Shown here piece by piece: positions 5,083 through 54,525 of a stretch of 64,000 nt of DNA; the stretch's first letter is position 1; every line of letters begins with the position of its first letter. Source of the stretch: Capitulum mitella (lineage: Eukaryota; Arthropoda; Thecostraca; Pollicipedomorpha; Pollicipedidae); the NCBI GenBank assembly GCA_030062745.1, contig CP099850.1, forward strand, positions 3,968,001 to 4,032,000, read 5' to 3'. Position numbers and translations under genes: made by a program. The notes beneath the pieces were generated by a model. It did no database searches and had not been told where the DNA came from. It was given only the letters and a program-made list of their open reading frames with translations.

Positions 5083-5319
5083 GCTATTGGCAACCCTGAT
5101 TCCTAGTTCATATTGTTCCAGAACACCTTACCTCAAACTGATACGTGCGGCATGCTATAGATGTCAAGTAAAATGAAACCATCAGTTCCAAATATTTACA
5201 AAGTTTCCTGTGTACAGGCGAACGCTGGCACAATCAATTCGCATACTGCGGTAGTGAATATGGCGCATAAAAGACATTTCTCAAGCAATAGCATCCCAGC
5301 AATTCATCAAACTCAGACG

Positions 5320-5662
5320 ACTGACTGACCCCCGACGAGACACAAGACGTCGACCCAAGACTGGACACCTGAGCCCAAGAGGCTGTGTGTCCCAACTCAC
5401 AAACAAGGAAACAAACAATTCATTAAACTTACAAACGCCTGACGAGACAGAAGACTCCACACTAAGCTCTGGAACACCTCAGTCCAAGAGGCTGTGTCCT
5501 AACCCGCAAACGAACGGAGCAACTCAGACGACTGCCAGTTGAGACACAAGACTCAAGATACTTAAGCTCAAGAAACTGTGTGTCATAGCTCACAAAGGGA
5601 CAAACAATCTTGTGACTGAGTCCCCAGTATGTATTAGGTATCTGGGGCCCTGATGTATTCAC
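5320..5662 (+). repeat. Tandem repeat of about 105 bp, three units
   Basis: Units contain gacgagacacaagac, then an aagaggctgtgtgt core, then actcacaaac. The mirror copy is at 35400-35640, and a single-unit relative lies at 43130-43300, so the array belongs to an interspersed element and not only to the duplication. Confidence 0.6.
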
Positions 5663-6129
5663 TGAGCTAAGGATGATAAATGTGTATCTGTAGTGGTGCT
5701 GAACTGCTTTTGCTTCTGTTATTAAGGCTTAACAGGAAAACATGCCACACTGCTGCAGTCTGCAGTGGTGGTGTAAAAACATCACAAAAGTAAGTATATG
5801 CATGTGTTTGTGCCTTGTCTTTTCTTACATTATCTTCCTACTAATAAGATTACTGTGCCTTATTTTCAAGGCAAGGCAGTAACCTTTTTAACCAACATGC
5901 ATGGAGGTAGTGGTATGGAAATTGTACACATCAGGGTGGCAGTCATGTCTCGTGACAGTCGGGCAGGCATGAACTCGCCCTAATCATCCGTCACCCGCGG
6001 CAGTGGCGCCCCTGACGGTGAACGGTGAAAACATAAAACAGTCCGCTCGCTAGTCCATTTGACTGACGTTCGTGGTGGGTAAAGAAGGGCATAGGGCGAC
6101 CTTATGTTGTCTCCAGCAACCGAGGAAGG

Positions 6130-6690
6130 GAAACCAGTCCAAGGTTCGTAAATCAAGGGTTCGTATGGGAAAAGGTTCGTTGCCAAATGTTCGTTAACAT
6201 GAGGTTCGTATCGGAGAAGGTTCGAATCTGACAAGGTTCGTATCGGACAAGGTTGGTTCCGGGTTTGAGCCAAAGACGCAACCCCGCGCCGAAGGTGCAG
6301 TATAAGATACTGGAGGCCACAGGCCGATAAAGGGTCCGATCGGACTTGGCTCGGACCAGCAAAGAGATTAGGTTAGGTTAGGTTATGTTAGGTTACGATT
6401 TTAGGGCCACTCCTGTTCCGATACCAACCATTTGGGATACGAACCTTTTCACAAACCTTTGATTAAGAACCACCGGCGAAGCCAAAGGAGGACCGGGTGG
6501 ACCGGGCCCAGTCCCCTAAGGCCTGCATTTTTTTGTGAAAACTATTGCACATCGTCTTCCCAGCAGACGGTTTTTGTATTTCAGTTCACACCGAGCTCCT
6601 GCCCCCCCTCCCTCGCCTTAGAAAATCCTGGCTGCTCCCGTGTTAAGAACCTTTTTCATTACGAACCTTTTCTCATGCGAACCGTTTTCG
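6130..6690 (+). mobile_element. Foldback-like element with short-repeat arms, left
   Basis: The left part (6140-6260) is a degenerate tandem array of an aaggttcgtatcgg motif (about six units). The right part (6425-6680) carries the same motif inverted (tacgaacctttt). Between them are a gatccgatcgg-like block and a TTAGGTTAGGTTAGG run. Inverted arms made of short direct repeats are the hallmark of foldback elements. No transposase is present. The mirror copy is at 34340-34900. Confidence 0.55.
6367..6397 (+). repeat. Interstitial TTAGG-type run
   Basis: Consecutive ttaggttaggttaggtta, with one variant unit and one more ttaggtta. The arthropod telomere repeat is TTAGG. Here the spacing is mostly six (ttaggt), and the run sits in the centre of a foldback-like element, so it is part of the element and not a chromosome end. 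Confidence 0.5.
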
Positions 6691-6937
6691 GACGTCCCTT
6701 TTACAATACGAACGTAGCCCAGCACGTTGTCGGTTACCTAATACCGCACTACGCGCGGCGTAACCTCTATTGGGAGGCACCTTAGTCCTGTCGCACACTT
6801 TTATCGGCCTGCAGCCTCTAGTATGTTATACAGCGCCTTCGGCGCGGCGTTACGCCTACCGCGCATCGAACCCAAATCAGTACGGCGTATCAAGAGGAAT
6901 GGGTCTCAAAACCCTGTCAGATCTCGGTAAAACCGAT

Positions 6938-7440
6938 TTAGGCTCTACCGACGGGGTCTGTTGGCGAGCTGGGGAAAACGGCGCTGACGTAGTCTGGAGA
7001 GGTCGGAGCTGGCTCCAGCTCTGGCTCGTGATCCGTTACACGTTTCGGCATCCTTTCCGTTACCCTGTTACTCTTGTCAACCTGAAAACTTGGCCGAGAA
7101 CAGGAAGGTACGTGACTGGGTTGTCGCACTGACGTTCGGTCATCTGACATGCGCACGGACCTGGGAGTTAATGCCTCCCGCGAGACCTATGTAAATGGCT
7201 CACGTAAACTTGATCGTCAACATGTTTGGATTCTCTGGATTCTCTCCACAACCCCACGGTTCGAACACTGTTTCTGCTGCGATTGGCGCTCTGGCACCAT
7301 TTCAAGAAGTCGTGGAGCATCCCGTATAACGGCATACGCAGCTGACAACCATGCTTCAGTTCAGCCTGAGAAACCTGTGTTGTTCCCCAAACGTCACGCC
7401 GCAGCGCAAAAGAAAACGGCTCAATGGCGGATACCCATGG
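6938..7440 (-). pseudogene. Gypsy integrase C-terminal remnant, left arm
   Basis: On the minus strand, the frame ending near 7168 contains GTTQVSQAELKHGCQLR, the region after the integrase catalytic core of Ty3/gypsy elements, followed by a poorly conserved ...VDDQVYVSHL segment. The next frame (7156-6938) carries EPELEPAP...SAVFPSSPTDP, the acidic/proline tail typical of these polyproteins. Catalytic integrase residues, reverse transcriptase and RNase H are absent. The equivalent in the right arm is 33530-34065, where the segment directly follows the protease. Here the two are separated by the 7441-10127 insertion. Confidence 0.65.
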
Positions 7441-7811
7441 GTGTGGTTTTTGGAAAATGATTGTGGGTGCCCAAAGGCATATGGGGATATACATACGTGA
7501 CGTATCGGGGGGGGGGGGGCGGGGGGTAGGAGGTAGGACGGGTTCATGACGAGCGGCTATGCCTAAAGTTCAGAGAAATTGATTTAAAAAGGTATTACGA
7601 GAGGTAAATTGCAGAAGGATGTTCTATGTCAATCATCGATGACTGAAAGGCGGCGGTATCCTTAAAGAAAATATATCTCTTCCCGGTACCCGATAAACAC
7701 ACTCGGGAAAATATTTAAAATTGGTTATGAATTATGTGAATGGAAGTGCATTTTGGACACCTTAGGCAAATATTTCACGCATTTTAGTCATTGTATTTAT
7801 CGACAGTGCTC

Positions 7812-8072
7812 AGGCACAGCCAGGATTTTCCTCAGGGGGAAAATGTCAATTTTCGTCATATGCGACAGGCATATGACGAAATTTACAAGAAAGGCAGTAA
7901 TTTTAGGCAATTTATGTTACATTTAATGCACGGGAAAACATGACGTTTGCTTTTGCATCATATCTATGATCACTATTACGTATTCATGCGAAATCGTCAT
8001 GTATCTAGTGTAGACCGCTTGGCTCAGGGGGCCCATGGCCCCCATGTCCCCTTGGCTACGTCCCTGATAGTG
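7812..8072 (-). mobile_element. Small MITE-like element, copy 2
   Basis: Reverse-complement match of 3620-3893. It starts caggcacagccaggatttt and ends near cttggctacgtccctg. The two ends form an imperfect inverted repeat with shared AGCCA. Related end sequences (tggctacgtc or tggctatgcc) also occur at about 24170, 38220, 39660 and 42285, suggesting an abundant family. Confidence 0.55.
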
Positions 8073-9039
8073 CTATCGGTACCCGAAATACAATAACAGT
8101 ATTAAAGAAAGGAACCAATCACCGAGTAGAAAATAGATACGTTGGTGAGCCTGGAACGCACCTGTTGCTTAGCCAACACCCTGTCTTGTACCAGGCGCAG
8201 TTATAAACGGCAGGAACGATTGTTTTTCAAGAACAGCACCAACGCATTTCGACATATTCACGTAATGCATACCTGTGGGGGAAATTCGTGGGACTGCAGC
8301 GGTACTTGCCTGAATACATGATGGCCGCCTTCATAAGTTCCATGTTCGTCAACTGTTGTCAGTTTTGACATCGCCGAGGCTAACGATACGCACGTTTTAA
8401 CATTTTATCGTTGATTTCAGTGGTGGAAAGAAACTAGGATGAACAGATAAAACTTGGGACGACAGCCGGCGTACTTACATCAGTAAAAACGAGCTAACGA
8501 GAGCGATTGGCAAGAATGAATGGTACAGCCGCTTCGATTCATAAAGATGTCCTAGAGTCGCACGTGTACAGTCAAAAATGAGTTGATACAGTGGAGTAGA
8601 TACGAGTAGATACAATGAGTAGACACGCGACTTCAGTAGATACACTCCCTTTAATGGAGAACCTTGCTCCTCGGCCCAGCTTGACACAATTTTACCAAGA
8701 GGGTAGCGGGGAAAAGCAGTTGGTGTGTGACAGTGGAATAAATAAGTCTCGATTTTTGTTCATGAGGCTGTTTTTAGGTGGTTAACGTCATGGGTCTGAT
8801 AATACAACTATATTGGAATATTTAAACACGTTAAGTTGTGGGTGCTCAAGTCGTATTGTGGGTGCCCATTTCCACTTTGTGGGTGCCCCGGCACCCACAC
8901 ACGTCCTGCCACCCGGCCTCAACCCTATTCCCTGAGGGCTAAACGATATGACCGATTCCCGGTTGGGCGCGGATCCGCCCCCCCCCCCCGAGATCTCGAA
9001 AACTACACATCCGGTTTCATCGCGTCAAACGGCAATCGA

Positions 9040-10127
9040 TTTGCCATGACGTAAAGTACACTTTTAAAAGAAGAAATTCTCAAAATTTTGAAGGGGTGGG
9101 TACGGGGGACAAAAACGTCAAAATGGGGGATGTTTTTGGGCTTTTTGTAACTCCGTTGTTTATGGACCGATTTCGATGAAATTGGCATGAACCGAGAGAT
9201 GATGAATGGGACTTTTACCATTGAAGCACACATTTGAAATTTTGAGAAAATTTATGGGCGTTCACGAGGTTTTAAAAATAGGAGGATAAGTTGTTCAACA
9301 ACTGAATGAACAAAAAAGTTAAAGCACTTTTTTGGCGTCTGCTGGTCATGTTATCCTGAAGAAGTACAAATCGTATTACAAAGTTTGCATAACGTTGGAC
9401 ATGGGCGGTGCCAGGGACGTGAAGAAAGGGAAACTGTTATGGTCACATGTTCTTTAGATCAACTTATGACCTTTGGTCTTCAATGATTTTCAGTGACCTT
9501 GGAGTCACTTGGAATGGTCTCGTGTGCCTTTGAGATTATTTGAGAACGTTGTCAGTCATTTGAATTGACTCTATCTCAAAAATTTCATTTTACGGCTATT
9601 GTGATCAGGGTACCTGTACTGACATTTTACGTCATAGCGCCGTGACCCAACATGATATCAAGCTGAAACTTGGTACACAAGTAGAGGGCACTCTTTTACG
9701 TCAATGTATTCCGGGTTTGGCATTTGAAGAAATAGTGCCGAAATTATTACTATAAAACCAAATTTTTACTGTTGACCTTGACCTGAGGTTCGAAAGTGAC
9801 CTCAGATAAACGAAATTGTATTCTGATGTTGTCCAACTATGTAGCTATACATCCATATGAGGTTTTAAGCTTTATCTTAAAAACACTATTTTTGGCACTA
9901 TTTCCTTTTATCCTGAACAGGACCAAAAATGGCCTGAGGTTCTTCCCAAAAACGTCGCCTGGTTTCGCCCCTGAGCAGAATAAAATTCCGAAATTTTGTC
10001 ACAGTACGAAGGAAGATAAGCTAGGAAAGGTCACCAAGTTTCGTGAAACTGCTTCAAAAACCCTGGAATTTGGAAGCAAAAAATGCGAGGGGGCGGATTC
10101 CGCCTCACTGCCGGTAATGGGGTTAAT
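9040..10127 (+). repeat. Interspersed repeat R2, copy 1
   Basis: Direct-orientation match to 36605-37656, from actacacttttc-like sequence through repeated tgacctt motifs to a gcgg..ggacggattc end. No shared reading frame is intact, so the class is unknown. Copy 1 ends exactly at the gypsy protease remnant (cttccagccagttacg). Confidence 0.6.
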
Positions 10128-10560
10128 GGCTTCCAGCCAGTTACGACCACGGAGGCACGGACCACTGCCTTCGGCGATTACGAGGGGCAGACGAACAACG
10201 TGATGCTGGTAGCGCACGCCAACCAGCTCCTCCTCGCACACTGAAAGCTGTTACCCGCTTTTCGTCCTCAGACTGTAGGGGCAGGGTTTCGGTACAGGAG
10301 GGTTGACCGGCCATAGTCTGGTATGTAGCCTCACCACAGACCGACAGTGCAGCCTCCGTATCCAGCTCCATGGAAGTGGTTTGATCGTTCATGTGAACGT
10401 TCACCATGATAGGCGGCCTTCAACCTCCAGGACAGGAACACCGCAAACAGCTTAACCGTTTGTACTTCCCTATTGGCCTGCGCAGCATCGGCTGACAAAG
10501 TGTACGAAGCACGCGCCACACAAGGCAGACCGGCCGGGGACGATGACACTGATTTGGTTA
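10128..10560 (-). pseudogene. Gypsy aspartic protease remnant, left arm
   Basis: On the minus strand, VHMNDQTTSMELDTEAAL matches the flap and active-site region of a Ty3/gypsy retropepsin. The usual DTG triad reads DTE here. Downstream in another frame is GPCLRGRNWLEAI, the second conserved protease/linker motif. The frame is interrupted, so it is non-functional. The same DTE change occurs in the right arm, so it predates the inverted duplication. Confidence 0.7.
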
Positions 10561-10689
10561 ATTCATTCCAGTGCTGAAATCATGCTGCTCGTCGGTCTGG
10601 AGCTGGCCAGTATCGCGATCCTTTGCTTTACAAGCAGCTCGAGTGTGTCACACCTTACCACGGGCAGTACACTCGCAAACGGAACGGAC

Positions 10690-11230
10690 TAGGCTACTAG
10701 GGGTGGGCGGTTGACCTTCCAATGACGTTTTTTGCCGAGAGAACGAACGAACGCAGTACTATGAAATTTCGTGTAAATTTCGCTTAACTTTTCATTGATC
10801 ATTTTTACACCTGGTGTCAAAGTTGTCACCTCAGGTCCAGTTAAGTTTCTGACCTTGGTCAGGTAAAACACGCTTATGTCCAGAAAAGTTTAACGCCCTG
10901 TTTTCTTTTCGGGAAGTATATCACAATAAAGCTGGGAGGGATTAGAGATCTTGATACATGCAACAAAGCTGCTATCTGAGATTTTTCGGAATTATCCGGC
11001 TCTGTGACACAAGGTCAACCGTATTTTTAAGAAATGTCGTCGTTTTTTCGGAAATTCACAGATTTTTTCATACATTGTTTAGTGTGGGGAGATACCGACA
11101 TTCAGTTACCGTCAATGGGCAAAGTATGAATGACTTCCAGCCATTTACCTGAGGTCAGGTCACGTCAATAACGGTTATGACTTATGAGCCAAAATGCACC
11201 GCCGTCAAAATCAGCGATTCAGTACTCAGA
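10690..11230. repeat. Non-coding block conserved in both arms
   Basis: Contains tgacctc/ggtca motifs and mirrors 32100-32650 in the right arm, including the ttcggaattatccgg-like block. No coding capacity is seen. It is probably a further part of the inserted gypsy or another repeat, lying between the protease remnant and the F-box/WD40 gene. Confidence 0.45.
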
Positions 11231-11722
11231 ACGGGTAGAAATGGCGGGACTGGCTCGCACAGTAGCAAATAATACCAGAAAGTTCAAAAAGTTTCCAAAG
11301 AACTGTGTTTTGGAAATCAACAGGCGGTTGCGAATAAAGCTCTGACAATTCTGTAGATTGATAACTAATGAATTTTTCCAAACTTTAAGCAAGCAAGGTG
11401 CAAGGTGCAAGCAGCAAGGTGGCCGGCCGCCGCACGGCCATTCACCCTGGACAATAACAACCCCAAGGAAAACATCACACAATCGGCCCATGAGTCAGTC
11501 GTCCTGGACGACCAATGACCACCCAAAACCAGCCATACCCGTAGATGTGGCCGACTTGTTTAAAAGGGCCATTTTCTTTGCAATCATCGCGGCTTTGGTT
11601 TTGCGTTGAAATTGTCCAGGTCATGTCTCCAAATGAGCCGAGTGCGGACATTTCAGACGTTTTTAGTCCCGTCACCCGAACCAGTGTAGTAAACGTGCAA
11701 GTTCATATACGGTTCGTTGCAG

Positions 11723-12076
11723 CCGTGCGGCTCGGCAGACCGGCAATGGGTCCGGCCGTGTCGGCGCCGTCTGTCGGCTCTGCTGCGCCCGCTGGTCAGC
11801 CGGCGCCATCGCCGTCCGTCCCAGGACTTCACCAGCTGGCTGCCGGACGAGGTGCGAGCCCGATCCGCCGCCTGTCTCCCCTCCCGTACTGGACCGTTCA
11901 GAGCTAGTGTGGACAGCCGTAGACACCTGTTATTCGGTCTGTGTGCTCGAGCAGCAGTATCTCGCGAGAAAAGCTGCGGAAGAGAAACTGAATACTGGTG
12001 TTTGATGTACGAGTGATGATACCGTTCAATGTACTTATTTTCTTGTTCTTGTTCTTCTTGGCTTAACATGGTTAAC

Positions 12077-12107
<31 letters not shown>

Positions 12108-15100
12108 GGACTGTCTACTGCTTATCGTTATCCTATGGTTTAAGGTCATCAACTTTGCTGGGGAATCGTTAGTTTCATGTCTCTCCTGGACACCACAAAG
12201 CGGTGTTTGTTTCCATCGTTAGTGCGGTGCTGATCAGATGTGTAGGCTGGATCCGTTCTTGTATAATGAGGCATGCTGTCCCGCGCTGCCGTTTTCTTCA
12301 GGCCTTATGCCTTGAAATTTTTCAAAGGTCCTAGCATGTTTGGTGTCTTGAGAAACAGTGGACAGTGTGCCGTTAGCGCGCCTCTGTGCGGACAGATTCT
12401 GGTGAACATCCTGTCGCTTCTGCCACCTCGTGACCTGCTAAACGCGGCCGACGTGTGCCAGCGATGGAGCGCGGTGGCCGCCGATGACGGCGTTTGGCGG
12501 CGCTGCTGCCGCCGACTTGGCCTCAGCCTGTCGGACGACGCCGTCAGCTGGCGCGAGCTGGGCGTGCTGCGCTTTGTCTGGGCCGATCAGCCACTGCCGC
12601 CGCCCAGCGTGAGGTCACAGCCGGGGCGGGGCCTGCTGGCCGCGCCGTCACCAGTTGGCTGGACAGGGCTGGAGGGAGCCTGACCATGCCGGGTCCCTTG
12701 ATCAGCTGATCACGGAACGGGGGAGGGGAAGGTCCTCCGATTGTGCCGTCACCACTAGCCAGGACAGAGTTGGAGGGAGCCTGGCCATGCCTGGTTTCGA
12801 TGCGGGCTAACGATCCCCGGTACGTACTTTATCGGGACTCATAATTACGTGGTGCGATGTTGCATGCCAGTTGGCATTTTCATGTATGGTAATATGAGAC
12901 ACTGACCACCTCTGACCACTGGTCTCCATTTCCGGAGAGCAGCGCTGCCGTGACCGTTCGTCTGCGCTGTGTCTGCAGAAGCTGGAGGGTGTCACTAACA
13001 GGCTGCGATGCCTGGCCGCGGACGGTGATCGGCTCATCATGTATTCAGAGTACAAAGGCCTGGCGGTTAGTCGTGTCCGTCATCACCCACGTATTTTATG
13101 CCTCGTTTTTTTCCTTTTTGTTTTTGTAAAACAGCAACATGTTGTCTCCTGCAGTTTCTGAATGGCATCAGAGCATTCCGCGTAGAACTTTCGTTGAGTT
13201 ACGCGGTATGGAGGATTGATATTTCCTATGGTAGTCAGTTATGCGTTCACGTAAAATTTAAGGAGTCTTTGTTTTACCTGGTCTTCCTTTCTGTATCTGT
13301 GATGCAGTGGATCAAGGTATTCGGAATTCAGCTGATGAGGGATTCAAACAAAGATTGTATACGTGCAATGCCAGCTTTTTAAGATACTTTGGTATTGTCA
13401 GTTTTATTCCTCGAGCTTGGAAGAGAATGTTGCGAAACGTCAGAGTTCATATCCTTGCAGACAAAAGGGACAAATTACCGCGCATTAATTACCACGACAG
13501 ATTACTTTCAGGGTAATCAAAACTAAGGAAACGTATAATTTAATAAACTGAGCAGCTATCATTCGTACCACATTTCAGCAATTGCAGCATGAAGTCGTAG
13601 GTACATTCCATATAACTGTACGAGATCCACTAAGCTTCAAACATTCCAGTATCAAGTAACACACCGTCTCATATCCACAAATATATTTCTATATGTGCGC
13701 GGAACCGTGTCCGTCATGGCGGCGACCATCGTCTGCGCCCCTGCCACTGGACCTGCCACTGCCGCTGAAGTAAGCTGCTGGAGGCAGGAATAGGGGCTGC
13801 GGGTTTAATGCGGCGACGCCACGGTGAACATGGGACCACATCTGGGCATCTTTTCTAAAGCAGGTGCTTTTAAGTCAGCATGGAAAGTGTTTGGTCTTGA
13901 GGGTTTTGTTGTCCGGTATTTGTGTTAGTTTTGAGGGAGAGGGAGGGGGGGGGGTGAAGCACGTGTTACGTTTGCAGATGTTATGGCAAAATAGCAGCTC
14001 TATCGATTCATGGTCTACGATTCTCCTGTGTTGCGACACGCGATACATACATACGTACGCACGTACATGCATGTATGCATACACTCATTCACAAACACAT
14101 ACAGGCACATACATACATTCACACGTGTACATAGATATATGCATAAATGCATACATACATGCATATATCCATGCCTAAATACATACATACATACATTCAA
14201 ATGTACATACTGCGAGACACACACACACATAAGCACATACATAAAAGGATGTCAAAGATGACCATGCGTAATGCAGTTAGTGGTGATTGGTGCGGTCAGT
14301 GGTGACTGGTGCGGTCAGTGATGACTGTGGTGCGGCCGCCAGGTGTGGTCGGCCTCCAGTGGCCGGGTGCAGCATTGGCTGGGCCATCTGGACGGCGTCA
14401 TCAGCTGCATCAAGGCGGACGCTGACCTGGTGGTGGTCGGCTCCCACAAGGGCACGCTGACCGTCTGGCGAGCGACCACTGGGTGTCGGCTGCACGTCAT
14501 CAACGCCGGCTATGAGGGCCGGATCTCGAGCCTGGCCATGAGGGGCACCAGGTGGGAGGCACGCACCGGCCGGCCACTTCACAACCGTTGGGAGGGCACA
14601 GAAGCTGATTAGGTGTCAGCACGAGTCTCAGAGTTTGGTTAGCACGTTGAGTCTGGTAAGAGCTATCAAACGTATGTACATCGGCCACAACGCGACAGCC
14701 GAGCTGACCATGTTGAGGGCGCTTGATTGTCGAGCTGACTGGCCCGGTCACGAGCCAGGGAGTAGCGGGCGGATCTGTGGTGGATCATTCATTGATCATG
14801 ATCGGATCATTCACCATGTGGCCGAACGTCATGCGGCTCGAGTCGAGGAGCCGACTGATGGCCGCAGTGGTGTAGTCTGGACGGCACCGTCTTCTGAAGC
14901 CGAGGCTCCGTGCAGTGATTGCCTAGTGCTTGCTTTTTTCGCAGCTACATCTTGGTGCCGTTCTTGATCGGTGAAATGCTGCATCCCGTCTTTGTCGATA
15001 TGGTGGGCGTCTCTGACAGCTGACACGATGCTATCATCACCATCACCATGATGGCAATTGCCACAGTCGTGGTCGTCGTTGTCAGGGCAGTAAGCGGCTC

Positions 15101-16667: not shown

Positions 16668-16684
16668 GGCGGCGCTTCGTGACC

Positions 16685-20112: not shown

Positions 20113-20199
20113 CTCCCCCTGATATACTAATCACAGCATGGGCACCTCCGGGGTCTCCTGACCCTCGCGGAGCGTCTTGGCTCACTACTGTCCGATTCA

Positions 20200-21300: not shown

Positions 21301-21314
21301 AGCCTGTGAGGTTG

Positions 21315-24800: not shown

Positions 24801-25290
24801 CAAGTTGTATGGAAAAAATTCAAGTCTGGAAAAATCCGCTCTTTTCTCCGACCATCGGTCATTTAGGCTCGTTTTCTTGTTTCTGGTCGTAAAAATACGC
24901 TACATCGAAACTGACGGACGCATGTAAATACGTGTATTTACGAAAGTACGCGAATAGCTAGCAGTGGCAACTCGTGATCTCACAAACACCCGAGGCACGG
25001 CGCAAGTGTTGCACCAAATTATCTTCTGTACATTGTCTGTTAAATCGTAAATGATACCAGACCCTTATCAGATCGACGTATATAAAAGAGACGAAATCTT
25101 ACATGACGAATCACTTTTGTCCCAGGCAGAGATGGATACATGACCATCACTGCTGGGGCATACAGTCATTATCGAATCATCTGTGGACAGTTCCAGAACA
25201 TATATCCAACACTTTGAATGAATGCCAAATGAAAATATATTTCAGTTCATAGTTTTCCTACGAACACATCCCTTTCTCCTCCTCTGATGT
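24801..25290. other. No gene seen
   Basis: AT-rich with no recognised element. It ends in a pyrimidine-rich tract (cctttctcctcctctgatgtctag) that looks like a 3' splice site for the exon candidate that follows. Confidence 0.35.
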
Positions 25291-25294
25291 CTAG

Positions 25295-25523
25295 CCTCGT
25301 GCACTCCGGCGTCTTTTGGTCCGAATGTGGCGCCTCGACGGCGGCGACCAGAGGCAGTACTATATCTCGCCTCAGGGCTCTGTCAACTGTGTCGGGGTGG
25401 CCGACGTGAAGTTTGGCGGACGCTCACCAGGGGCGCTGTATTACACGGGATGGGCTGAGGCGGATGAGCTGGCTGCCTCGGCGGCCTTGCGCCGTGTGCT
25501 GGCGCGGACGGCCGACAGCGGGG
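25295..25523 (+). CDS. Orphan exon candidate, unknown protein
   Basis: After a good acceptor (polypyrimidine, tgtctag), GC-rich sequence of 229 nt stays open in one frame and ends before a possible donor (gggg/gtacgg). The translation includes VRMWRLDGGDQRQYY, SVNCVGVADVKFGG and ALYYTGWAEADELAAS. Base composition matches the coding exons nearby and contrasts with the AT-rich flanks. I do not recognise the family, and no partner exon was found on this strand. It lies just inside the inner edge of the right arm, so it may be an exon stranded by the rearrangement. It could also be chance. Confidence 0.3.
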
Positions 25524-26754
25524 GTACGGCGCGACGTGGAGAGCATGTTCATTGGTATGCTGATGAATGCAGGAGCCAAATACGCACATTATCCCAGTTT
25601 AATCATACATCCCATTTCATAAAAGGTGTTGGCACACACACATCACCTATGACTAATTCTACATTTCCCGACATTTTTGGTGTGGCAATGCCTGTTTCCT
25701 TTACTGATGAACCGCCACTGAGTTATTCGTATGACCACAGACTCATACAGATACATATAAGACCCAGCGCACCTCTCACGGTCAGCCAAGACTAAAGCCG
25801 AGCCGATCATCGCCGCAGCAACAGGCACAGTACGACGCAGGCAAGATGGCGTTTGTTCGAGAGAAGCAACATGGTGTCGTCCGATAGGAATGCCAGCACT
25901 GTCATCGTCATTAAATGTCACTGCCTCGTTCAGATGTACGAGGAAAATGATGAGGAATCAGTTATTCGAAGAATGCTGCAGTAGGCCAGTGGAAAGCAGG
26001 CTGTGAATGGAGCAAATGAACTTACCAAAACAATGGTCCCGGTTCGAGATTCAGCAAAAAGGCGGTTAGCAACAGCAAGCGTGTCAACAGAGCTACAAAA
26101 CAAAAACGGAGAACACAATTGTGTGAGGTCGAGGATGGATCAAAAGACCTAGAAAACGCGATAAGGTTCCATGCATTTGGGATACAAGGTCGCATATGAC
26201 GCCAGGGATCAAATGCAAATTCTCCGGCTTTCAAAAGGCAGGCTTTCATGTTCTTGCAGCCCATCTAAGGTGCAAGAATCTAACAAGGTGTGGCCATCTG
26301 GGCCACACCTATTCGGAGTGTTAAGCGTGAAACGCGCACGCAAACTGCGTAAAAGGCAACACGAAGCTTACTGATGATAACACCCGGCACGTTCAATAGT
26401 CACACAGCAAGCCATTTCCAAAACGAGAACTTCCACAATGAAGAGTCTGACACATCCCGGCAAAATCCATGCCTCTGGGTTGCTGGCGAAAAGGTCGAAT
26501 TCAATATATGCTGGCCGAATTTCCTATTGGCAGTACCCGTCGAAGACCCATTACAGGCATTATTGGCAATACTCATTCGCGACACGGTTGCGACTCGCTC
26601 GACAGCATCGCTTCTGCTGTTGGTCTGGATAGGCACCGAACCATCGTCGCCTCGGCCCAGCACCATTCCAGGACGAACACTTGGCCTTGCGCATGAACAG
26701 GAGGTGAAAGGCGCCCTCCGTCCCCCCCCCCCCAGCGGACACATCTTTGCGCCA

Positions 26755-27000
26755 CAGGAACATGTCTCACGTCCCGAGCGGAGCGAGAGCCATCGGACGC
26801 GCCTCTCGAGTCCCAGGTCACATCTCGAATTCCTGGGCACCTACCGAGTCACGGGACACATCTCGAGTCCCGGAGGCACGTCTCGAGTCCCAGTGACGTC
26901 TCGAGTCGCCAGGGCACGTCTCGAGTCCCAGGGACGCCTCGAATTACCGGGGCACATCTCGAGTCGCCAGGGCACGTCTCGGGTTTTCCGGAGAGGGTTA
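26755..27000 (-). repeat. CTCGAG minisatellite, copy B (expanded)
   Basis: About eleven units of a 20-25 bp motif (cgtctcgagtcnccagggca) next to the stop codon of copy B, about twice the length seen in copies A and C. Confidence 0.75.
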
Positions 27001-27012
27001 CGAAGCGCTGCC

Positions 27013-30000
27013 TCAGGTCTCGGGCGGCTGGTGCAGCGACATGTTGTAGATGAACACCTGTGCCCACTCCCAGTCGTCTGCGGTGTTGACGCTGCACATC
27101 AGCCGGTTCGGGCTGACCCACAGCCGATGGACGAGGTGGCTGCCGCTGCGCTTGGTCGACACCATCTCGCGCAGCAGCTTTCCGCTGCGGCAGTCCCAGA
27201 CCCGCACCCAGCCGCGGTAGGAGGACGCCACGGCCAGGCCGGCCAGCAGACGCACCCCAGACACCTGGTCACGGAAGCTGTCCCGTTTGGACCCCCTGCC
27301 GCCAGAGCAGAGCCCGTCACCGAGAACCAGGCGACCGTCACCGCACTGAAACGGCCACACCACAAGACCGCGGCTCGTCCCCATCGGTCCTGCCCGGTCA
27401 CCGAAATGGGGCGACACGGTCACCCCACATTTCCTCCTGATAAAGATACATCGCGGATACCAGCATTGTAACATTCATTGTCGGCTATAGCAACCACACG
27501 AACACATTCCGCCAGTCACACGGCATCTCAACGCTTGACCTCTGCCAGTCAGCGCTCCCAGCTGCCTCGCCTGTTGGCTCTCGCCTACCAGCTGTGGAGG
27601 CAGCGGCCGCTGCTCAGGTCCCAGAGCATCAGCGCGCCGCCTTCGTAGCCGGCCAGCAACCGGTCCTCGTGCAGACTGAAGTAGGGCGGATACCCGCGGT
27701 CGCCGCGCATTTCGAAGCGCACACGGCGCGTGGTCATGTCCAGCACGCTGATGACGCCGTTCTCGTGGCCGCTGACCACCACGCCGAAGCCGTGCTGTCG
27801 GGCGGACGGACCGGGTCACGCGTGTCAGAAGACAGAACCTCACACAGACACCGGTGCTTTGTAGTTCAGTCGGTATCAGACGGCAGATTCTCAGACCGAC
27901 GCCGGTGTCGTCTGGCTTAGCCGGGACTAAAAAAAAACATTGGTGGCACGCCACGAAGCACTCATCACGGTCGCACTCCTGGAATCGGTTCACTTCGTTT
28001 CCAGGTGCTAGCACGGATGTCATTTATTATCCACCTCGCACAAGCGATGTAAATTAATGCCTGATTCCGACCTCATTACACTCTTAGCACGGCCAAGACA
28101 AAGCAGTGCCGTGCCGGGCCGTCATCAGGCCAGAGCTCACCTCCAGCGTCGTCACCAGGTTGCCACCAGTCTGCCAGACGGCCTCTTCGGCGTGCGTCTC
28201 AGGATTCCAGAGGCGGACGCAGCCGTTCCGGTCACCAGAGCTGATCCACCGGCCGTCAAAGCAGACTTGCACCACGCATGTCGCGTGGCCGCGCAGGACG
28301 GCCTGTTGAGAGCCGGACTCCAGGTCCCAGAGCAGTATCGTTCTGTCCTCCGAGCCGCTTACTGCCCTGACAACGACGACCACGACTGTGGCAATTGCCA
28401 TCATGGTGATGGTGATGATAGCATCGTGCCAACTGTCAGAGGCACCCCATGTCCATAGACACGAGAAGAGTGCGGAATGCAGCATTTCACCGATCAAGAA
28501 CGGCACCAAGGCGTGGCTGCGAGAAAAGCAAGCGAGAGCCAATCTGTGCACGGAGCCTCGGCTTCAGGAGAAGGTACCGTCCAGACCACACCACTGCGGC
28601 CATCAGTCGGCTCCTCGACTCGAGCCGCATGACGTTCGGCGACATGATGAGCCACCACAGATCCGCCCGCTACTCCCTGGCTCGTGACCGGGCCAGTCAG
28701 CTCGACAATCAAGCGCCCTCAACATGTCAGCTCCGCTGTCGCGTTGTGGCCGAACATACGTTTGATAGCTCTTACCAGACTCCACGTGCTAACCAAACTC
28801 TGAGACTCGTGCTGACACCTAATCAGCTTATGTGCCCTCCCAACGGTTGTGAAGTGGCCGGCCGGTGCGTGCCTCCCACCTGGTGCCCCTCATGGCCAGG
28901 CTCGAGATCCGGCCCTCATAGCCGGCGAGTACGTGCAGCCGACACCCAGTGGTCGCTCGCCAGACGGTCAGCGTGCCCTTGTGGGAGCCGACCACCACCA
29001 GGTCGGCGTCCGCCGTGATGCAGCTGATGACGCCGTCCAGATGGCCCAGCCAATGCTGCACCCGGCCACTGGAGGCCGACCACACCTGGCGGCCACACCA
29101 CAGTCATCACTGACCGCACCAGTCACCACTGACCGCACCAGTCACTACTGAACACATTACGCACGGTCATCACTGGCATCCTTTTATGTATGTGCTTATG
29201 TACAAGTGTATGTCTCGCAGTATGTATATGTGTATGCATGTATGTATGTATTTATGCATGCACATATGTATGTATGTATGTATTTATGTATATATCTGTG
29301 CACACTTATGTACGTACGTATGTATGTGTATGTATGTATGTATGTATGTGTGTGTATGTATGTATGTATGTATGTATGCATGCATGCATGTATGCATGTA
29401 CGCGCGTATGTATGTTTGTATTAGGTGTCACAAGACAGGAGTCGCAACACAGGAGAATCGTAGACCATGAATCGATAGAGCTGCTATTTTGCCATGACGT
29501 ACGCAAACGTAACACGTGCTTCAACCCCCCTTCGTCTCCCTTAAAACTAACACAAATGCCGGACGACAAAACCCTCCAGACCAGACACTTTCCATGCGGA
29601 CTTAAAAGCGCCTGCTTTAGAAAAGATGCCCAGATGTGGTCCCGTGTTCACCGTGGCGTCGCCGCATTAAACCCGCAGCCCCTATTCCTGTCTCCAGCAG
29701 CTTACTTCAGCGGCAGTAGCAGGTCCAGTGTCAGGGGCGCAGACGATGGTCGCCGCCATGACGGACACGGTTCCGCGCACATATAGAAATATATTTGTGG
29801 ATATGAGACGGTGTTTTGCTTGATACTTGAATGATTGAAGCTTAGTGGATCTCGTACAGTTACATGGAATGAACATAAGAGTTCATGCTGCCATCGCTTA
29901 AATGCGGCACGAACGATAGATGCTTAGTGTAGTAAATTGTACATTTCCTTAGTTTTGGTTACCCAAAAAGCAACCTCTTTATCGCGGTAATTAATGCACG

Positions 30001-31623
30001 GTAATTTGTCCCTCTGGTCTGCGAGTATATGAACACTGACGATTCGCTACATCCCCCTCCAAAGTCGGGAAACAACAATGGCAATACCAAAGTATCTTAA
30101 GAAGCTGGTACTGCACGTAGACGATCGTTGTTTGAATCCCTCATCAGTTAAAGTCCGAACACCTTGATATACTACATCACAGATACAGAAAGGAAGACCT
30201 GATGAAACAAAGACTCTTTGAATTTTATGTTGACGCACTCATTGACTACCGTAGGACAAATCAAACCCCCATCCCGCATAACTCAACGCAAGTTCTGCTC
30301 GCATTGCTGTGGTACAACTGGGGAACTGTAACTGAGAACATGTCGCCCTTTAACAATCACATACACAGCCGTGGCACAGAATACGTGGGCGATGACGGAC
30401 ACCACTCACCGCCAGGCCTTCGCGCTCTGAAAACATGATGAGCCGATCACCGTCCGCGGCCACGCACCGCATCCTGTTAGTTACACCCTCCAGCTTCTGC
30501 AGACACAGCGCAGATGAACGGTCACTGGCAGCGCTGCTCTCCGGCAATAGAAACCGGTGGTCAGAGGTGGTCAGTGTCTGGTATTATCACACACGAAAAC
30601 GCCAACTGAGCTCGCTGGCATGCAACATCGCAGAGCGTAATTGTGTGCTCGATAAAGTAAGTGTCGGGGATCGCTAGCTCGCATCGAAAACAGACATGAC
30701 CAGGCACCCTCCTACCCTGTCCTGTTGGGCCCCGCCCCGGTTGTGACCTCACGCTGGGCGGAGGCAGTGGCTGATCGGCCCAGACAAAGCGCAGCACGCC
30801 CAGTTCGCGCCAGCTGACGGCGTCGTCCGACAGGCTGAGGCCCAGTCGGCGGCAGCAGCGCCGCCAAACGCCGTCATCTGCGGCCACCGCGCTCCACCGC
30901 TGGCACACGCCTGCCGCGTTCAGCAGGTCACGAGGCGACAGAAGCGACAGGATGTTCACCAGAACCTGTGCGCACAGAGGCGCACTAACGGTACGCTCTC
31001 CACTGTTTCTCAAGACACTAAACATCCTAGGACGCTTGAAAAATTTCACTACATAAGGCCTAAAGAGGAACGGCAGCGCGCAACAGTATGCCTCTTCATA
31101 CAAGAACGGATACAACCTATATATCTGATCAACACCGCACTAACGATGGAAACAAACACCGTTTTGTAGTGTCCAGGCGAGACAACAAACTAACGATTCC
31201 CCAGAGAAGCTGACGACCCTAAAAGCGTAAAATATCACAAAAAGCACACAAGTTTTATCCAAAACCAATCAAGCAAAGCCAACAAGAGCCACGCAAGAAA
31301 ATAATTACATTAAACGGTATCATCGCTCGTACATCAAACACCAGTATTTAATTTCGCTTTCGCAGCTTTTATCGGGAGATACTGCTGCTCGAGCACACGG
31401 ACCAAATAATAGCTGTCCGCGGCTGTCTACACTAGCCCTGTACCGTCCGGTACGGGAAGAGGACGAGGGAACAGGCGTCGGATCGGGCTCGCACCTCGTC
31501 CGGCAGCCAGCTGGTGAAGTCCTGGGACGGGCGGCGATGGCGCCGGCTGACCAGCGGGCGCAGCAGAGCCGACAGACGGCGCCGACACGGCCGGACCCAT
31601 TGCCGGCCTGCCGAGCCGCACGG
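27013..31623 (-). CDS. F-box/WD40-repeat protein, copy B
   Basis: Exon-for-exon paralogue of copy A, with the same proposed role as an SCF ubiquitin-ligase receptor. Minus-strand exons: 31623-31495, 30965-30753, 30496-30410, 29085-28880, 28366-28141, 27794-27589 and 27345-27013 (TCA complement of TGA at 27013). Exon lengths equal those of copy A except the fourth, which is one codon shorter (HVLAGYEG instead of HVINAGYEG). All GT-AG sites are kept, and the third exon has a better donor (gtgagt) than copy A. All frames are open. Amino-acid changes are few, for example RCLAADGDRLIMYSE to RCVAADGDRLIMFSE and GTLLREM to GKLLREM. The phase discord at the last intron is shared with copy A. Both copies could be active. 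Confidence 0.8.
29180..29425 (-). repeat. TATG microsatellite in intron, copy B
   Basis: Long imperfect tatg array, the mirror of 14040-14240. Open frames rich in Y, C, M and V here are repeat artefacts. Confidence 0.9.
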
Positions 31624-32099
31624 CTGCAACGAACCGTACATCAACTCGCACATTTACTATACTGCTACGGATAACGGACCTAAAAACGTCTGAAATGTCC
31701 CGACTCGGCTCATTTGGAGAAATGACCTGGACAATTTCAGCGCAAAACCAAACCCGCGATGATTGCAAAGAGAATGACCCGTTTAAACAAGCCGGCCACA
31801 CCTCCGGATATGGTTGGTTTTGGGTGGTCATTGGTGGTCCATCACGACTGACTCATGGGCCGATTGTGTGATGTTTTCCTTGGGGTTGTTATTGTGCAGG
31901 GTTCTAGTCCTTGCTGCTTGCAACTTGCACCTCGCATGCTTAAAGCTCGGTAAATCCAGTGGCTATGAATCTACACTACTGGCAAAACTTTATTCGCGAG
32001 AGCTTGTTTATTTCCAGAATACACAATTTTTTGAAAACCTTTTGAACTTTCTGGTATTGTTTGCAACTGTGCTAACCAGTTCTGCCATTTTTTACCTGT

Positions 32100-32650
32100 T
32101 CTGAGTAATTAATCGCTGATTTTGACGGCGGTGCATTTTGGATTATAAGTCAAAACAGTTATTCGTGAACTGACCTCAGGTAAATGGCTAAAAGTCATTG
32201 ATACTTTGCCGATTGACGGTAACTGAATGCCTACATCACCCCACACTAATCACTGTATGAAAAAATCCGTGAATTTTCGAAAAAAACGACATGTATTGAA
32301 ATGTATGGTTGACCTTACAACACGGACCCGGATAATTCCAAAAAACCTCAGATAGCAGCTTTGTTGCATGCATCAAGATCTCTAATCCGTCCCAGTTTTA
32401 TTGTGATATTATGCTTTCCGAAACGATTACAGGGCGCTTCACTTTTTTGGACATAGGTGCGCTTTACCTGACCAATGTCAGACACCTACCGTGACCTTAC
32501 GTCAAAACTTTGTGGCAAGGTGTAAAAATGATTAATGAAAACTTACACGAAGTTTCGTAGCGCTGCGTTCGTTCGTTCTCTCTGGAAAAGCATTAGGGGG
32601 CAGTCAACCGCCCCCCCCCCCAGTCGGGGCGAGTTAACAAAGAAGGGTTT
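32100..32650. repeat. Conserved non-coding block, right arm
   Basis: Mirror of 10690-11230, including the gaccttac..cacggacccggataattcc block and a poly-C run at 32611-32622. No coding signal. Confidence 0.45.
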
Positions 32651-32929
32651 AAGTGTGTGGCGTCAGCTGTGGGATCGGTCCAGCTTTTTGCTGGTGCTGC
32701 ACACTTTTCTGGCTGGAATGTTTGCGTACGACCCAATAGCCAGTAGCCTGTCAATGTCCGTTCCGTTCGCGAGTGTACTGCCTGTGGAAAGGTGGGACAC
32801 AGTCGAGCTGCTTGTAAGACAAAGGATCGCGATACTGGCCAGCTCCAGTGCGACGAGCAGCGTGATTTCAGCGCTGGAGTGAATCAATGAAATCATTATT
32901 ATCGTCCCCGGCCGGTCTGCCTTGTGTGG

Positions 32930-33420
32930 CGAATGGTTCGTCCACTTCGGCAACCGATGCTGCGCACGCCAATAGGGAGGTACAAACGGTTGAGCTATTT
33001 GCGGTGCTCCTGTCCTGTAGCTCAAAGACCGCCTAACACGGTGGACGTTCACATGAACGATCAAACCACTTCCATGGAGCTGGATACGGAGGCTGCACTG
33101 CCGGTCTGTGGTGAGACTACATACCACAGCCCATGGCCGGTCAACCCTCCTGTACTGAAACGCTGCCCTTACAGGGTTTCAGTACAGTCTGATGACGAAC
33201 TTTACAGTATTTTACTGATGACGAACTTTACAGTACTTTACAGTACTTAGTCTGATGACGAACAGCGGGGAGCAGCTTCCAGCGCACGGGGAGGTGATGG
33301 TTGACGTGCGCTACCAGAATCACGTTGTTCGTCTGTCTCTCGTAATCGCCGAAGGCAGTGGTCCGTGCCTCCGTGGTCGTAACTGGCTGGAAGCCATTGA
33401 GGTGGGATGGCAGGACGTGT
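32930..33420 (+). pseudogene. Gypsy aspartic protease remnant, right arm
   Basis: VDVHMNDQTTSMELDTEAAL gives the retropepsin active-site region with DTE in place of DTG. After a short local duplication of ctgatgacgaactttacagta (about 33190-33260) comes a second frame with SGEQLPAHGEVMVDVRYQ and GPCLRGRNWLEAIEVGW, the C-terminal protease and linker motifs of Ty3/gypsy pol. Several frames are needed to read it, so it is dead. Confidence 0.7.
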
Positions 33421-33486
33421 GTTGCATGTCACTTCATTCTCATATCCAACCCATTTGTTTCCTGAGGTGAATTACGGCTGATCCGT

Positions 33487-34065
33487 TTGCCGAGGTTCGC
33501 GAAGCAGGAGCTGGGCACGGTAACCGCCAGTGTGCCGTTTTCTTTTTCATTGCCGTGTTACGTTCAGGGAACAACACAGGTTTCTCCGGCTGACCTGACG
33601 CTTGGTTGCCAGCTGCGTACGCCGTTGAAAAGGATGTCTCCCGACCTCGCCAAACGGTGCCAGGTCGCCAATCGCAGCAGAAACAGTATCGGGACTGTGG
33701 GGTTGCGGAGAAAATCCAGAGAATCCAGATTTGTCGGCGATCAGGTTTACGTCAGATATCTGCACGGCTCTCGCCGCAGAAATTAGCTTCCAGGTCAGCT
33801 GGGGGACGGACAGGGAGTAAAACGTCCTGGGCGCATGCGAGATGGCCGAAGCCACATCCCAGTCACGCACGGCCCTGTTCTCGGCCAAGTTTTGAGACTG
33901 AAACGCGTGGCATGCGATCGGAAGGGGTGACGGGACGTGCACCGGATTCCGAGCCACAGCTGGAGCCAGCTCCGAGCTCTCCAAACGACTACGTCAGCGC
34001 CGTTTTCCCCAGCTCGCCTACAGACCCCGTCGGTACAGCCTCCATCGGTTTTACCGAGGTCTGAT
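33487..34065 (+). pseudogene. Gypsy integrase C-terminal remnant, right arm
   Basis: GTTQVSPADLTLGCQLRTPL is the post-core integrase motif of Ty3/gypsy pol, followed by RFVGDQVYVRYLHGS and, in another frame, PQLEPAPSSPNDYVSAVFPS. Reverse transcriptase, RNase H and the catalytic integrase core, normally between this and the protease, are missing. Protease and integrase tail lie less than 150 bp apart, so a large internal deletion occurred before duplication. Confidence 0.7.
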
Positions 34066-34165
34066 ACGGTTTGAGACCCATTCCTGTTGATACGCCGCAC
34101 CGATTTGAGTTTCATTGCGCGGTAGGCGCAACAAAAGCATCCCATCTGATATATCCTATATTAAC

Positions 34166-34210
34166 GCTAGCATCCTATACCGCGCCTTCGGCGCGGTATA
34201 GGATGCTAGC
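34166..34210. repeat. Perfect 21-bp-stem hairpin
   Basis: Two perfectly complementary 21-bp arms (34166-34186 and 34190-34210) separated by ttc. The arms read gctagcatcctatacc, then a CG-rich tip. Shorter versions of the ccgcgccttcggcgcgg tip recur at about 6835, 24430, 34730, 39370 and 42435. Confidence 0.9.
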
Positions 34211-34339
34211 GGCAGCAGGCCGGTAAAAGTGTGCAGTAGGACTAGGTGCTGTCCAACAGAGGTTGCGTCGCGCGAGGCGCGGTATTAGGTTACGGACAGC
34301 GTACTGGGCTACGTTCGTATTGTGAAAGGTCCGTCCGAA

Positions 34340-34900
34340 AACGGTTCACATGAGAAAAGCTTCTTAATGAAAAAGGTTCTCGACAGGGGCGCCGCAAGGA
34401 TTTCCTAAGGGGCGGGGGGGGACGGCTAGGAGCATGGTGTGAACTGAAACCATACGAAAACTGTATGCTAGGAAAACGATGTGCAATAGTTTTCACAAAA
34501 AATGTGAGCCTACGGGGATTGGGCCCGGACCCCCGTCCTCCTTTTGGCTGCGCCTGTGGTTCTTAATCAAAGAATTGTAAAAAGGTTCGTATCCGAAATG
34601 GTTGGTAGCAGAACCGGAGCGGTCCCTAAAATCGTAACCTAACATAACCTAACCTAACCTCTTTCCTGGTCCGAGCCAAGTCCGATCGGACCCTTTATCG
34701 GCCTGTGGCCTCCAGTATCTTATACTACACTTTCGGCGCGGGTTTGCGTCTTTGGCTCAAACCCGGAACCAACCTTGCCCGATACGAACCTTGTCAGATT
34801 CGATCCTTCTCCGATACGAACCTTATGTTAACGAACATTTGACTATGAACCTTTCCCCATACGAACGTTTTATTTACGAACCTTGGTCTGGTTACCCTTC
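34340..34900 (-). mobile_element. Foldback-like element with short-repeat arms, right
   Basis: Mirror copy of 6130-6690. The tacgaacctt-type array is at 34760-34890, the inverted partner at 34360-34600, and a cctaacctaacctaacc core at 34635-34660. It has no coding capacity. Confidence 0.55.
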
Positions 34901-35399
34901 CTCGGTCGCTGGAAATAACATGAGGTCGCCCTATGCCCTTCTTTACCCATCAGTAACGTCAGTCCAAAGGACTAGCGAGCGGACTGTTTCATGTTTTCAC
35001 CGTTCGTCGTCGGGGGCGCCACTGTCGCGGGTGACGGATGATTAGGGTGAGTTGACGCCTGCCCGACCGTCCCGGGACATGACTGCCACCCTCATGTGTA
35101 TAATTGCCATAGCACCACCTGCATGCATGTCGGTTAAAAAAGTTATTGCCTTGCCTTACAGTAATGTATGGTAATCTTATTATTAGGTAGATAATGTAAG
35201 AGAAGACAAGGCACAAACACATGCATATACTTACCTTTGTGATGTCTTTACACCACCACAGCAGACTGCAGCAGTGTGACATGTTGTTTTGGAATTAAAG
35301 CTTAAAAAAAGCAAAGGTAGTTCAGCACCACTACAAATACACATTTATCATCCTTAGCTCAGTGAACGCATCTGGGCCCCAAATACCTAATACATACTA

Positions 35400-35640
35400 G
35401 GAACTCAATCACAAGTTTGTTCGTTTGTGAGCTGACACACAGTCTCTTGGGCTTAAGTATCCAGCCTTGTGTCTCGTCTGGCGTCAGTTAGTCGTCTGAT
35501 TTGCTCGGTTTGTTTGTGGGTTAGCCTCTCGACACAGACACAGCCTCTTGGGCTGAGGTATCCCAGAGTATTGTGTGGAGTCTTGTGTTCCGTCAGGCGT
35601 TTGTCAGTTTGCTAAATTGCTCGACTGCTCTTCTTTTAGA
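35400..35640 (-). repeat. Tandem 105-bp block, right arm
   Basis: Mirror of 5320-5662, with two clear units containing agcctcttgggct and gtctcgtctggcg. Confidence 0.6.
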
Positions 35641-35835
35641 AATGTCTTTTTTGCGCCATGTTCACTACCACAGTGTACAAATTAATTGTGCCAGCCTTTG
35701 CCTGAGCAGAGGAAAGTTTGTAAATGTTTGGAACTGATGATTTTCTTTTACTAGGCATGCATAGCATGCGGCACATATCGGCTCAAGGTAAATTGTTGGG
35801 GAAGAATATAAACTAGGAATCACTGTTGCCAATCG

Positions 35836-50306: not shown

Positions 50307-54525
<4,219 letters not shown>

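What the first reader, a model, noticed from the sequence alone, without database searches (positions are those of the whole stretch)
5083..35835. Giant inverted duplication with an F-box/WD40 gene in each arm
Arms of about 10 kb (12.6 kb on the left with its insertion) mirror each other in block order, including seven matching exons. An 8-kb spacer separates them. Both gene copies keep all frames and splice sites, while introns and flanks have diverged, so both may be maintained by selection or gene conversion. Such palindromes are prone to instability, copy-number change and hairpin formation.
Basis: seen in the sequence. Interest (0 to 1): 0.7.

Follow-up and report, generated by a model that had tools for sequence, protein, structure and literature searches.

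The report
Inverted, gene-converted F-box/WD40 gene cluster
An animal genome carries two complete mirror-image copies of an F-box/WD40 gene beside two broken copies, and patches of the copies seem to have been overwritten by one another; this is a clear but familiar kind of local gene-family evolution.

Summary
The inverted duplication is real. Left arm 5086-17642 (+) pairs with right arm 35833-25755 (-), with weaker homology to 17906/24697. It does not look like a fold-back: background non-coding divergence is about 14%, and each arm has private insertions. Each arm holds a six-exon F-box plus WD40 gene (427 and 426 aa), in frame, dN/dS 0.41.

Two copies were missed. The spacer holds a 3'-only copy, C (22793-21289, -). 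A deleted copy, D, starts just left of the window, in direct orientation with A. So the "palindrome" is the largest inverted pair in a four-copy cluster, D(+) A(+) C(-) B(-). C shares with A an insertion of about 220 bp that B lacks.

Divergence is patchy: A and B differ at 3 of 205 sites in 14552-14760 and at none of 358 columns in 15024-15381, introns included. Shuffles reached runs of at most 143 (5000 shuffles). Different copy pairs are closest in different segments. Ectopic gene conversion explains this best, but it was not observed directly.

Related genes on another contig also form an inverted pair. Known kind (Drosophila Hsp70 and Amy, C. elegans hsp16). The organism may be a barnacle (inference).

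The parts
5086..17906 (+). Left arm A of the inverted duplication. A belongs to a unit that shares sequence with copy D out to about 19802.
   Evidence: Self-BLAST; alignments
24697..35833 (-). Right arm B, with a B-specific stretch of about 790 bp at 24964-25755
   Evidence: block limits
12336..12608 (+). Copy A exon 1: start codon and F-box
   Evidence: Pfam F-box-like 1.6e-12 for the surrounding ORF; gene model
12979..13065 (+). Copy A exon 2
14343..14551 (+). Copy A exon 3 (WD40 blades)
15086..15311 (+). Copy A exon 4, identical to copy B at 226 of 226 sites
15658..15863 (+). Copy A exon 5
16385..16667 (+). Copy A exon 6, last blade and stop; acceptor inferred from paralogs
30753..31025 (-). 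Copy B exon 1 (F-box)
30410..30496 (-). Copy B exon 2
28880..29085 (-). Copy B exon 3, one codon shorter than in A
28141..28366 (-). Copy B exon 4
27589..27794 (-). Copy B exon 5
27013..27295 (-). Copy B exon 6
21289..22793 (-). Copy C: last 98 bp of exon 5, intron 5, exon 6 and 3' flank; 95.5% to A, carries A's intron 5 insertion
15980..16200 (.). Insertion in intron 5 of A with imperfect self-complementarity, flanked by GTTACAA repeats; also in C (about 22357-22572), unfilled site in B at about 27472. Transposon-like by my reading only.
14552..14760 (.). A-B identity patch 1 in intron 3: 3 differences in 205 columns
15024..15381 (.). A-B identity patch 2, end of intron 3 through exon 4 into intron 4: 358 identical columns
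2436..4210 (+). 3' part of unit D, pair of 18236-19802 in unit A. Copy D begins left of the window at -5627 and is interrupted by a transposon-like insertion spanning -166 to 2440.
18236..19802 (+). 3' part of unit A, direct-repeat partner of 2436-4210
22798..24685 (.). Dispersed repeat between C and arm B; inverted partner at 39116-41124
20200..21399 (-). Spacer stop-to-stop ORF with retrotransposon integrase domains (H2C2 and rve); its first 110 bp or so lie inside the 3' end of C

Best explanation
A local cluster of four copies of one F-box/WD40 gene grew by segmental duplication in direct (D-A) and inverted (A-B, A-C) orientation, and has been partly homogenised by ectopic gene conversion. 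A and B are intact and presumably make substrate receptors of SCF ubiquitin ligases; C (3' fragment) and D (two internal deletions) are relics. Shown: copies, orientations, open frames, patchy identity, and the insertion shared by A and C but not B. Inferred: conversion as the cause of the patches, with donor and direction unassigned; the order of events; splicing of exon 6; SCF function. A likely order is: B split from the A/D lineage first; A and D duplicated later; the short insertion entered A's intron 5; the tail of A was copied in reverse into the spacer as C; conversion then overwrote patches between A-B, D-B and D-A.
For: Non-coding A-B divergence is 13.0-14.5% in two upstream blocks, intron 1, most of intron 2, the middle of intron 3 and the second part of intron 5, but 1.5% at 14552-14760, 0 of 62 at 15024-15085 and 4.3% in intron 4. 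Longest identical run 358 columns against at most 143 in 5000 shuffles; non-coding columns alone 132 against 112. Fewest mismatches in 300 non-coding columns 6, against at least 13 in 3000 shuffles. Introns 1+2 against 3+4: P = 3e-9. Site patterns with C favour A=C over A=B by 135:8 in the 3' flank but 9:8 at 15766-15980. D matches B at 674 of 698 sites over -5617..-4919 and at 414 of 504 over -4819..-4304 (P = 3e-17), yet is closer to A in the 3' flank: 79-95% against 62-76% in three windows at 17000-17749. The insertion is in A and C with an unfilled site in B. Open frames, dN/dS 0.41.
Against: One genome assembly and no reads or other individuals: conversion is inferred from patchiness, not seen as shared polymorphism. 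Patch limits, and the D-B limits, were chosen after seeing the alignment; in the D-B count one transitional window (92 of 99) and three end windows (36 of 82, 60 of 86, 5 of 16) were left out. Shuffles treat sites as independent and ignore local rate or constraint differences; arm windows of 250 bp outside the patches mostly range from 76% to 92%. The 3' flank is 25-29% diverged, not 14%, so the arms do not share one age. Exons 3-5 are also the most constrained part (dN/dS 0.16). Two A-C stretches differ (24 of 332 against 18 of 913), so the origin of C may need more than one step. The synonymous contrast between exons 3-5 and the others is only P = 0.03.
Confidence: 0.8

Rival explanations
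1. A plain old inverted duplication without conversion: low divergence in exons 3-5 and the flanking intron pieces reflects purifying selection on exons plus conserved intronic elements.
For: Exons 3-5 have dN/dS 0.16; exon 4 is conserved in six paralogous loci at 50-55% amino-acid identity.
Against: Intron 3 changes from 1.5% to 14.3% to 0% within 540 bp; 132 consecutive non-coding columns are identical; synonymous divergence also falls, 0.039 against 0.113 (P = 0.03); different copy pairs are closest in different non-coding segments.
Confidence: 0.12
2. Assembly artefact: a fold-back, or allelic haplotypes of a very heterozygous animal joined side by side.
For: If this is a barnacle, allelic divergence can be large: median 5.3% over 66 genes and about 20% at fourfold sites in Balanus improvisus (PMC8270832, passages). 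Some segments are 97-100% identical.
Against: No N in the window. Arms have private insertions and deletions, 25-29% divergence in the 3' flank, and no inverted match beyond 5086/35833 that continues the arms. The copies are inverted and mosaic, and C and D have their own breakpoints. The same gene family shows another inverted pair about 102 kb apart on contig C14.
Confidence: 0.06
3. The arms are held together by ongoing selection for a palindrome that protects the genes by arm-to-arm repair, as proposed for mammalian Y palindromes.
For: Inverted arms, genes in both arms, conversion-like patches.
Against: Arms are about 14% diverged outside the patches; human Y palindromes exceed 99.9% (PMC3723533, start of abstract in a listing). 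D, which lies in direct orientation with A, also shares a near-identical stretch with B and is 96-98% like A in exon 1, so mirror symmetry between two arms is not needed.
Confidence: 0.02

Closest known systems
Drosophila Hsp70 pairs and Amylase Amy-p/Amy-d
   Same: Tightly linked paralogs in palindromic orientation with ectopic conversion (PMC3924832, passages).
   Different: For Amy the passage says concerted evolution is confined to coding sequence; here introns are included in the patches, background divergence is large, and truncated copies lie in and beside the spacer.
C. elegans hsp16-1/hsp16-48 inverted modules
   Same: Inverted modules of identical sequence inside diverged flanks, explained by conversion (PMC3966223, passages).
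   Different: Modules 416 bp apart there against about 6.8 kb here; genes unrelated.
Palindromic gene blocks of the springtail Folsomia candida and of the rotifer Adineta vaga
   Same: Invertebrate inverted gene blocks; 11 palindromes in F. candida and 17 in A. vaga (PMC5490193, passages).
   Different: Those authors found a wide range of Ks and concluded that concerted evolution does not explain their blocks; here conversion-like patches are visible. Reproductive mode of this organism is unknown.
Human Y-chromosome palindrome P6
   Same: Arms exchange sequence by gene conversion (PMC3723533, start of abstract only).
   Different: Arms over 99.9% identical against about 14% non-coding divergence here; sex linkage unknown here.
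F-box/WD40 substrate receptors FBXW7, beta-TrCP, Cdc4
   Same: F-box followed by a WD40 propeller; phmmer of exons 1-5 gives E 2.4e-40 for FBXW7 chains.
   Different: Substrate-binding residues were not compared; orthology to a named FBXW was not established.

Membership tests
Inverted duplicate gene pair under ectopic gene conversion | Two gene-bearing arms in opposite orientation on one chromosome | tested here: met
   window lies in contig C12
Inverted duplicate gene pair under ectopic gene conversion | Identity patches with borders that ignore exon-intron limits | tested here: met
   limits chosen after seeing the alignment
Inverted duplicate gene pair under ectopic gene conversion | Paralogs more alike within a species than orthologs between species, or shared polymorphism | not testable with these tools
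   One genome only; the genome search states that it has no relatives here
Large near-identical palindrome (Y-chromosome type) | Arm identity above about 99% | tested here: not met
   13.0-14.5% non-coding divergence in most blocks outside the patches
F-box/WD40 (FBXW) protein | N-terminal F-box | tested here: met
   PF12937 E 3.8e-12 (A) and 3.4e-12 (B), above its cut-off
F-box/WD40 (FBXW) protein | C-terminal WD40 repeats forming a propeller | tested here: met
   PF00400 above its cut-off in both (47.3 and 52.3 bits against 27). Most of the more specific propeller models match below their cut-offs. Seven blades is my reading of the sequence; the fold was not predicted.
F-box/WD40 (FBXW) protein | Binds SKP1 and recruits substrates | not testable with these tools
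   needs experiment
Assembly fold-back artefact | Uniform near-zero divergence between arms | tested here: not met

The most novel reading that the evidence does not exclude
This F-box/WD40 subfamily is expanding in its host by repeated inverted duplication: a tail-to-tail pair on contig C12 and a head-to-head pair on C14, with conversion keeping the propeller core shared while the F-box end and last blade diverge (dN/dS 0.42 and 0.63 against 0.16). It could be a diversifying set of ubiquitin-ligase receptors, comparable to plant S-locus F-box clusters (recalled), in an animal.
Probability: 0.1. Interest if true: 0.5.

Novelty: new member of a known kind. Interest (0 to 1): 0.27.

Why it matters
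It is a compact natural record of how inverted and direct copies of one gene seem to exchange sequence. An insertion shared by two copies and absent from the third, plus introns that jump between 0% and 14% divergence, make the exchanges readable from a single genome. It also warns that assigning reads or orthology in this gene family may mislead in exons 3-5.

Tried and rejected
An exon 6 start at the TTTCAG acceptor (16335) gave a phase clash with exon 5, and I considered an extra 28-nt exon and loss of the frame. Both were dropped when paralogs on C14 and C3 pointed to an acceptor at GGCGGCAG; the joined frame is open in A and B. Figures for exon 6 and intron 5, and the exon mask, predate this correction; searches use it.

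I first took 2436-4210 / 18236-19802 for a transposon pair. Rejected: it is the 3' part of the D/A unit. D is interrupted by an insertion whose outermost 16 bases are inverted repeats of each other (76% over 179 columns) with TTATACAG on both sides; A has the unfilled site.

No Rfam match at gathering thresholds and no tRNA in the window. The bacterial promoter scan is uninformative here. Ten further ORFs gave no Pfam match at E up to 1, among them 25295-25795, which looked exon-like, 4 of 9 gave none. Of five paper searches, two looked for this kind of gene and locus (8 of 265 papers listed; 8 of 13 listed; listings only); the rows shown name no such animal cluster. That is weak evidence of absence.
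Full report
WHAT WAS CHECKED. Self-comparison of the window shows collinear inverted blocks from 5086/35833 to 17642/25755, and a weaker block to 17906/24697. In a global alignment of the arms, 250-bp windows mostly lie at 84-92%; six of the seven windows starting at 14250-15750 reach 93-99% (the seventh, 14750, 88%), and the four starting at 16750-17500 fall to 64-75%. A has 7436-10124 of which B keeps only scattered columns, a 123-bp stretch in intron 1 and a 221-bp stretch in intron 5; B has about 790 bp of its own near the spacer.

THE GENE. Each arm carries one gene. Exons in A: 12336-12608, 12979-13065, 14343-14551, 15086-15311, 15658-15863, 16385-16667 (+). In B: 31025-30753, 30496-30410, 29085-28880, 28366-28141, 27794-27589, 27295-27013 (-). 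The last acceptor was inferred by comparison with paralogs on C14 and C3, without RNA evidence. The joined frames give 427 and 426 aa. F-box-like (PF12937) and WD40 (PF00400) are above their cut-offs in both; most of the more specific propeller models match below theirs. By phmmer exons 1-5 match Tako8 chains best (designed propellers, as I recall) and FBXW7 at 2.4e-40. I count six exons, not seven. NG86 for the whole frame: dS 0.075, dN 0.031, ratio 0.41; 29 nonsynonymous of 52 differences, P = 0.002 against neutrality. By part: exons 1-2 0.42, exons 3-5 0.16, exon 6 0.63, so constraint on the ends is modest.

TWO MORE COPIES. Copy C, 22793-21289 (-), holds 98 bp of exon 5, intron 5, exon 6 and 3' flank, 95.5% like A. 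Its joints lie against a dispersed repeat (22798-24685) and inside an integrase ORF. A search of the genome (477,042,490 bases, 16 contigs; window = C12:3968001-4032000) showed another F-box 3 kb left of the window. The fetched flank contains copy D from -5627, in direct orientation with A. D has exons 1, 2 and 4 but lacks about A 13106-14595 (exon 3) and about 15684-17187 (nearly all of exon 5, all of exon 6) by BLAST limits (the alignment scatters a few columns inside these gaps). Its 3' part continues as 2436-4210 after an insertion spanning -166 to 2440; the matching part of A is 18236-19802. The protein search (exons 1-5 as query) gave 49 matches, 14 of them on C12, all in D, A, C or B. 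Counts are lower bounds by the tool's own note, and a copy with exon 6 alone would be missed.

MOSAIC RELATIONSHIPS. Non-coding A-B differences: upstream 287 of 1986 and 301 of 2153; intron 1 32 of 246; intron 2 166 of 1176 and, at its end, 11 of 93; intron 3 3 of 205, then 34 of 237, then 0 of 62; intron 4 15 of 346; intron 5 11 of 116 and 24 of 176; 3' flank 139 of 562 and 112 of 385. Exon 4 has 0 differences in 226. The longest identical run, 358 columns (15024-15381), exceeds the largest of 5000 shuffles (143); for non-coding columns 132 against 112. Six mismatches in 300 non-coding columns compares with at least 13 in 3000 shuffles. Site patterns among A, B and C (A=C: A=B: B=C) are 135:8:5 of 580 columns in the 3' flank, 22:5:0 of 333 at 16335-16667, 12:6:4 of 118 in the rest of intron 5, and 9:8:6 of 214 at 15766-15980; gapped columns, which include the insertion, were dropped. 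D matches B at 674 of 698 sites at -5617..-4919 but at 414 of 504 at -4819..-4304; one transitional window (92 of 99) and three end windows (36 of 82, 60 of 86, 5 of 16) were left out of that test. In exon 1 D is 96-98% like A and 91-96% like B; in the 3' flank it is closer to A, 79-95% against 62-76% in three windows at 17000-17749. No single tree seems to fit all segments; no tree was built. Conversion or equivalent patch copying among the copies is the simplest account; direction was not determined. The 25-29% divergence of the 3' flank also means that the arms are not of one age throughout.

A TIME MARKER. In intron 5 of A (15980-16200) and of C sits an insertion with imperfect inverted ends between near-repeats GTTACAA; B has the unfilled site. 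So C was copied from an A-like sequence after A and B parted, or the insertion was passed between A and C. The transposon-like nature is my reading; no database match was made.

GENOME CONTEXT. Paralogous stretches at 34-58% amino-acid identity lie on C3 (892631-900855) and C14 (17.60-17.73 and 18.77-18.81 Mb; one more hit at 17.11 Mb), others on C4 and C13, and single weak hits on C1, C6 and C7. The C14 copies at 17599k (-) and 17711k (+) form another inverted pair, about 102 kb apart, 88-97% identical in 23 of 23 windows of 400 columns within the fetched stretches, with a gap of about 6 kb in one copy (BLAST). A further plus-strand copy lies between them at 17.69 Mb. So inverted pairs occur at least twice in this family. 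The pair in the window is tail to tail, the C14 pair head to head.

ORGANISM. Not given. Sixteen contigs and 477 Mb resemble barnacles: Capitulum mitella has 463 Mb in 16 chromosomes (PMC8416341, passages), and a figure legend draws 16 chromosomes for C. mitella and Pollicipes (PMC11331182, passages). This is an inference from size and number only.

COMPARISON WITH WHAT IS KNOWN. Mirror-image gene pairs with ectopic conversion are established cases: Drosophila Hsp70 and Amy (PMC3924832, passages), C. elegans hsp16 (PMC3966223, passages). Invertebrate palindromic blocks are described in F. candida and A. vaga (PMC5490193, passages). The locus is therefore a new member of a known kind. It is not a near-identical palindrome of the Y type, since its arms are about 14% diverged outside the patches.

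LIMITS. One assembly, no reads, no relatives. Patch limits were set after seeing the data, and shuffle tests ignore rate variation along the sequence. Gene function, expression, splicing and instability are inferred or untested.

Noticed in passing
window -166 to 2440 (C12:3967834-3970440): Transposon-like insertion inside copy D, with inverted ends of about 180 bp (76% alike), TTATACAG on both sides and minus-strand ORFs at 353-1123 and 1133-1735 without Pfam match.
   Followed up: partly
50452-54562 (-): ORFs that look like exons of one gene: ankyrin repeats at 54053-54562 (Pfam) and a lysine/acid-rich stretch at 51607-53166; resembles ANKRD11/12 from memory, not tested.
   Followed up: no
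35889-39043: Arrays of a 62-bp tandem repeat just outside the right arm, in both orientations (35889-36282 and 37802-39043), around 36640-37658, a relative of the 9092-10124 part of arm A's insertion.
   Followed up: no
16678-16776, 21799-21896, 26804-26981: Short tandem repeats rich in CTCGAG motifs just after the stop codon in A, C and B; longer in B (178 bp) than in A and C (98-99 bp).
   Followed up: no
25295-25795 (+): ORF in a B-specific stretch, looks exon-like by eye, no Pfam match.
   Followed up: partly
L033 2120-2636 and L036 6736-7252 (C14): Two C14 paralogs each carry an inverted partial copy of exon 5 directly beside exon 5, a small inverted repeat inside the gene.
   Followed up: partly
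53302-53529 and 62660-62969: Minisatellite arrays (37-bp units; 16/32/48-bp and 37/73-bp units).
   Followed up: no
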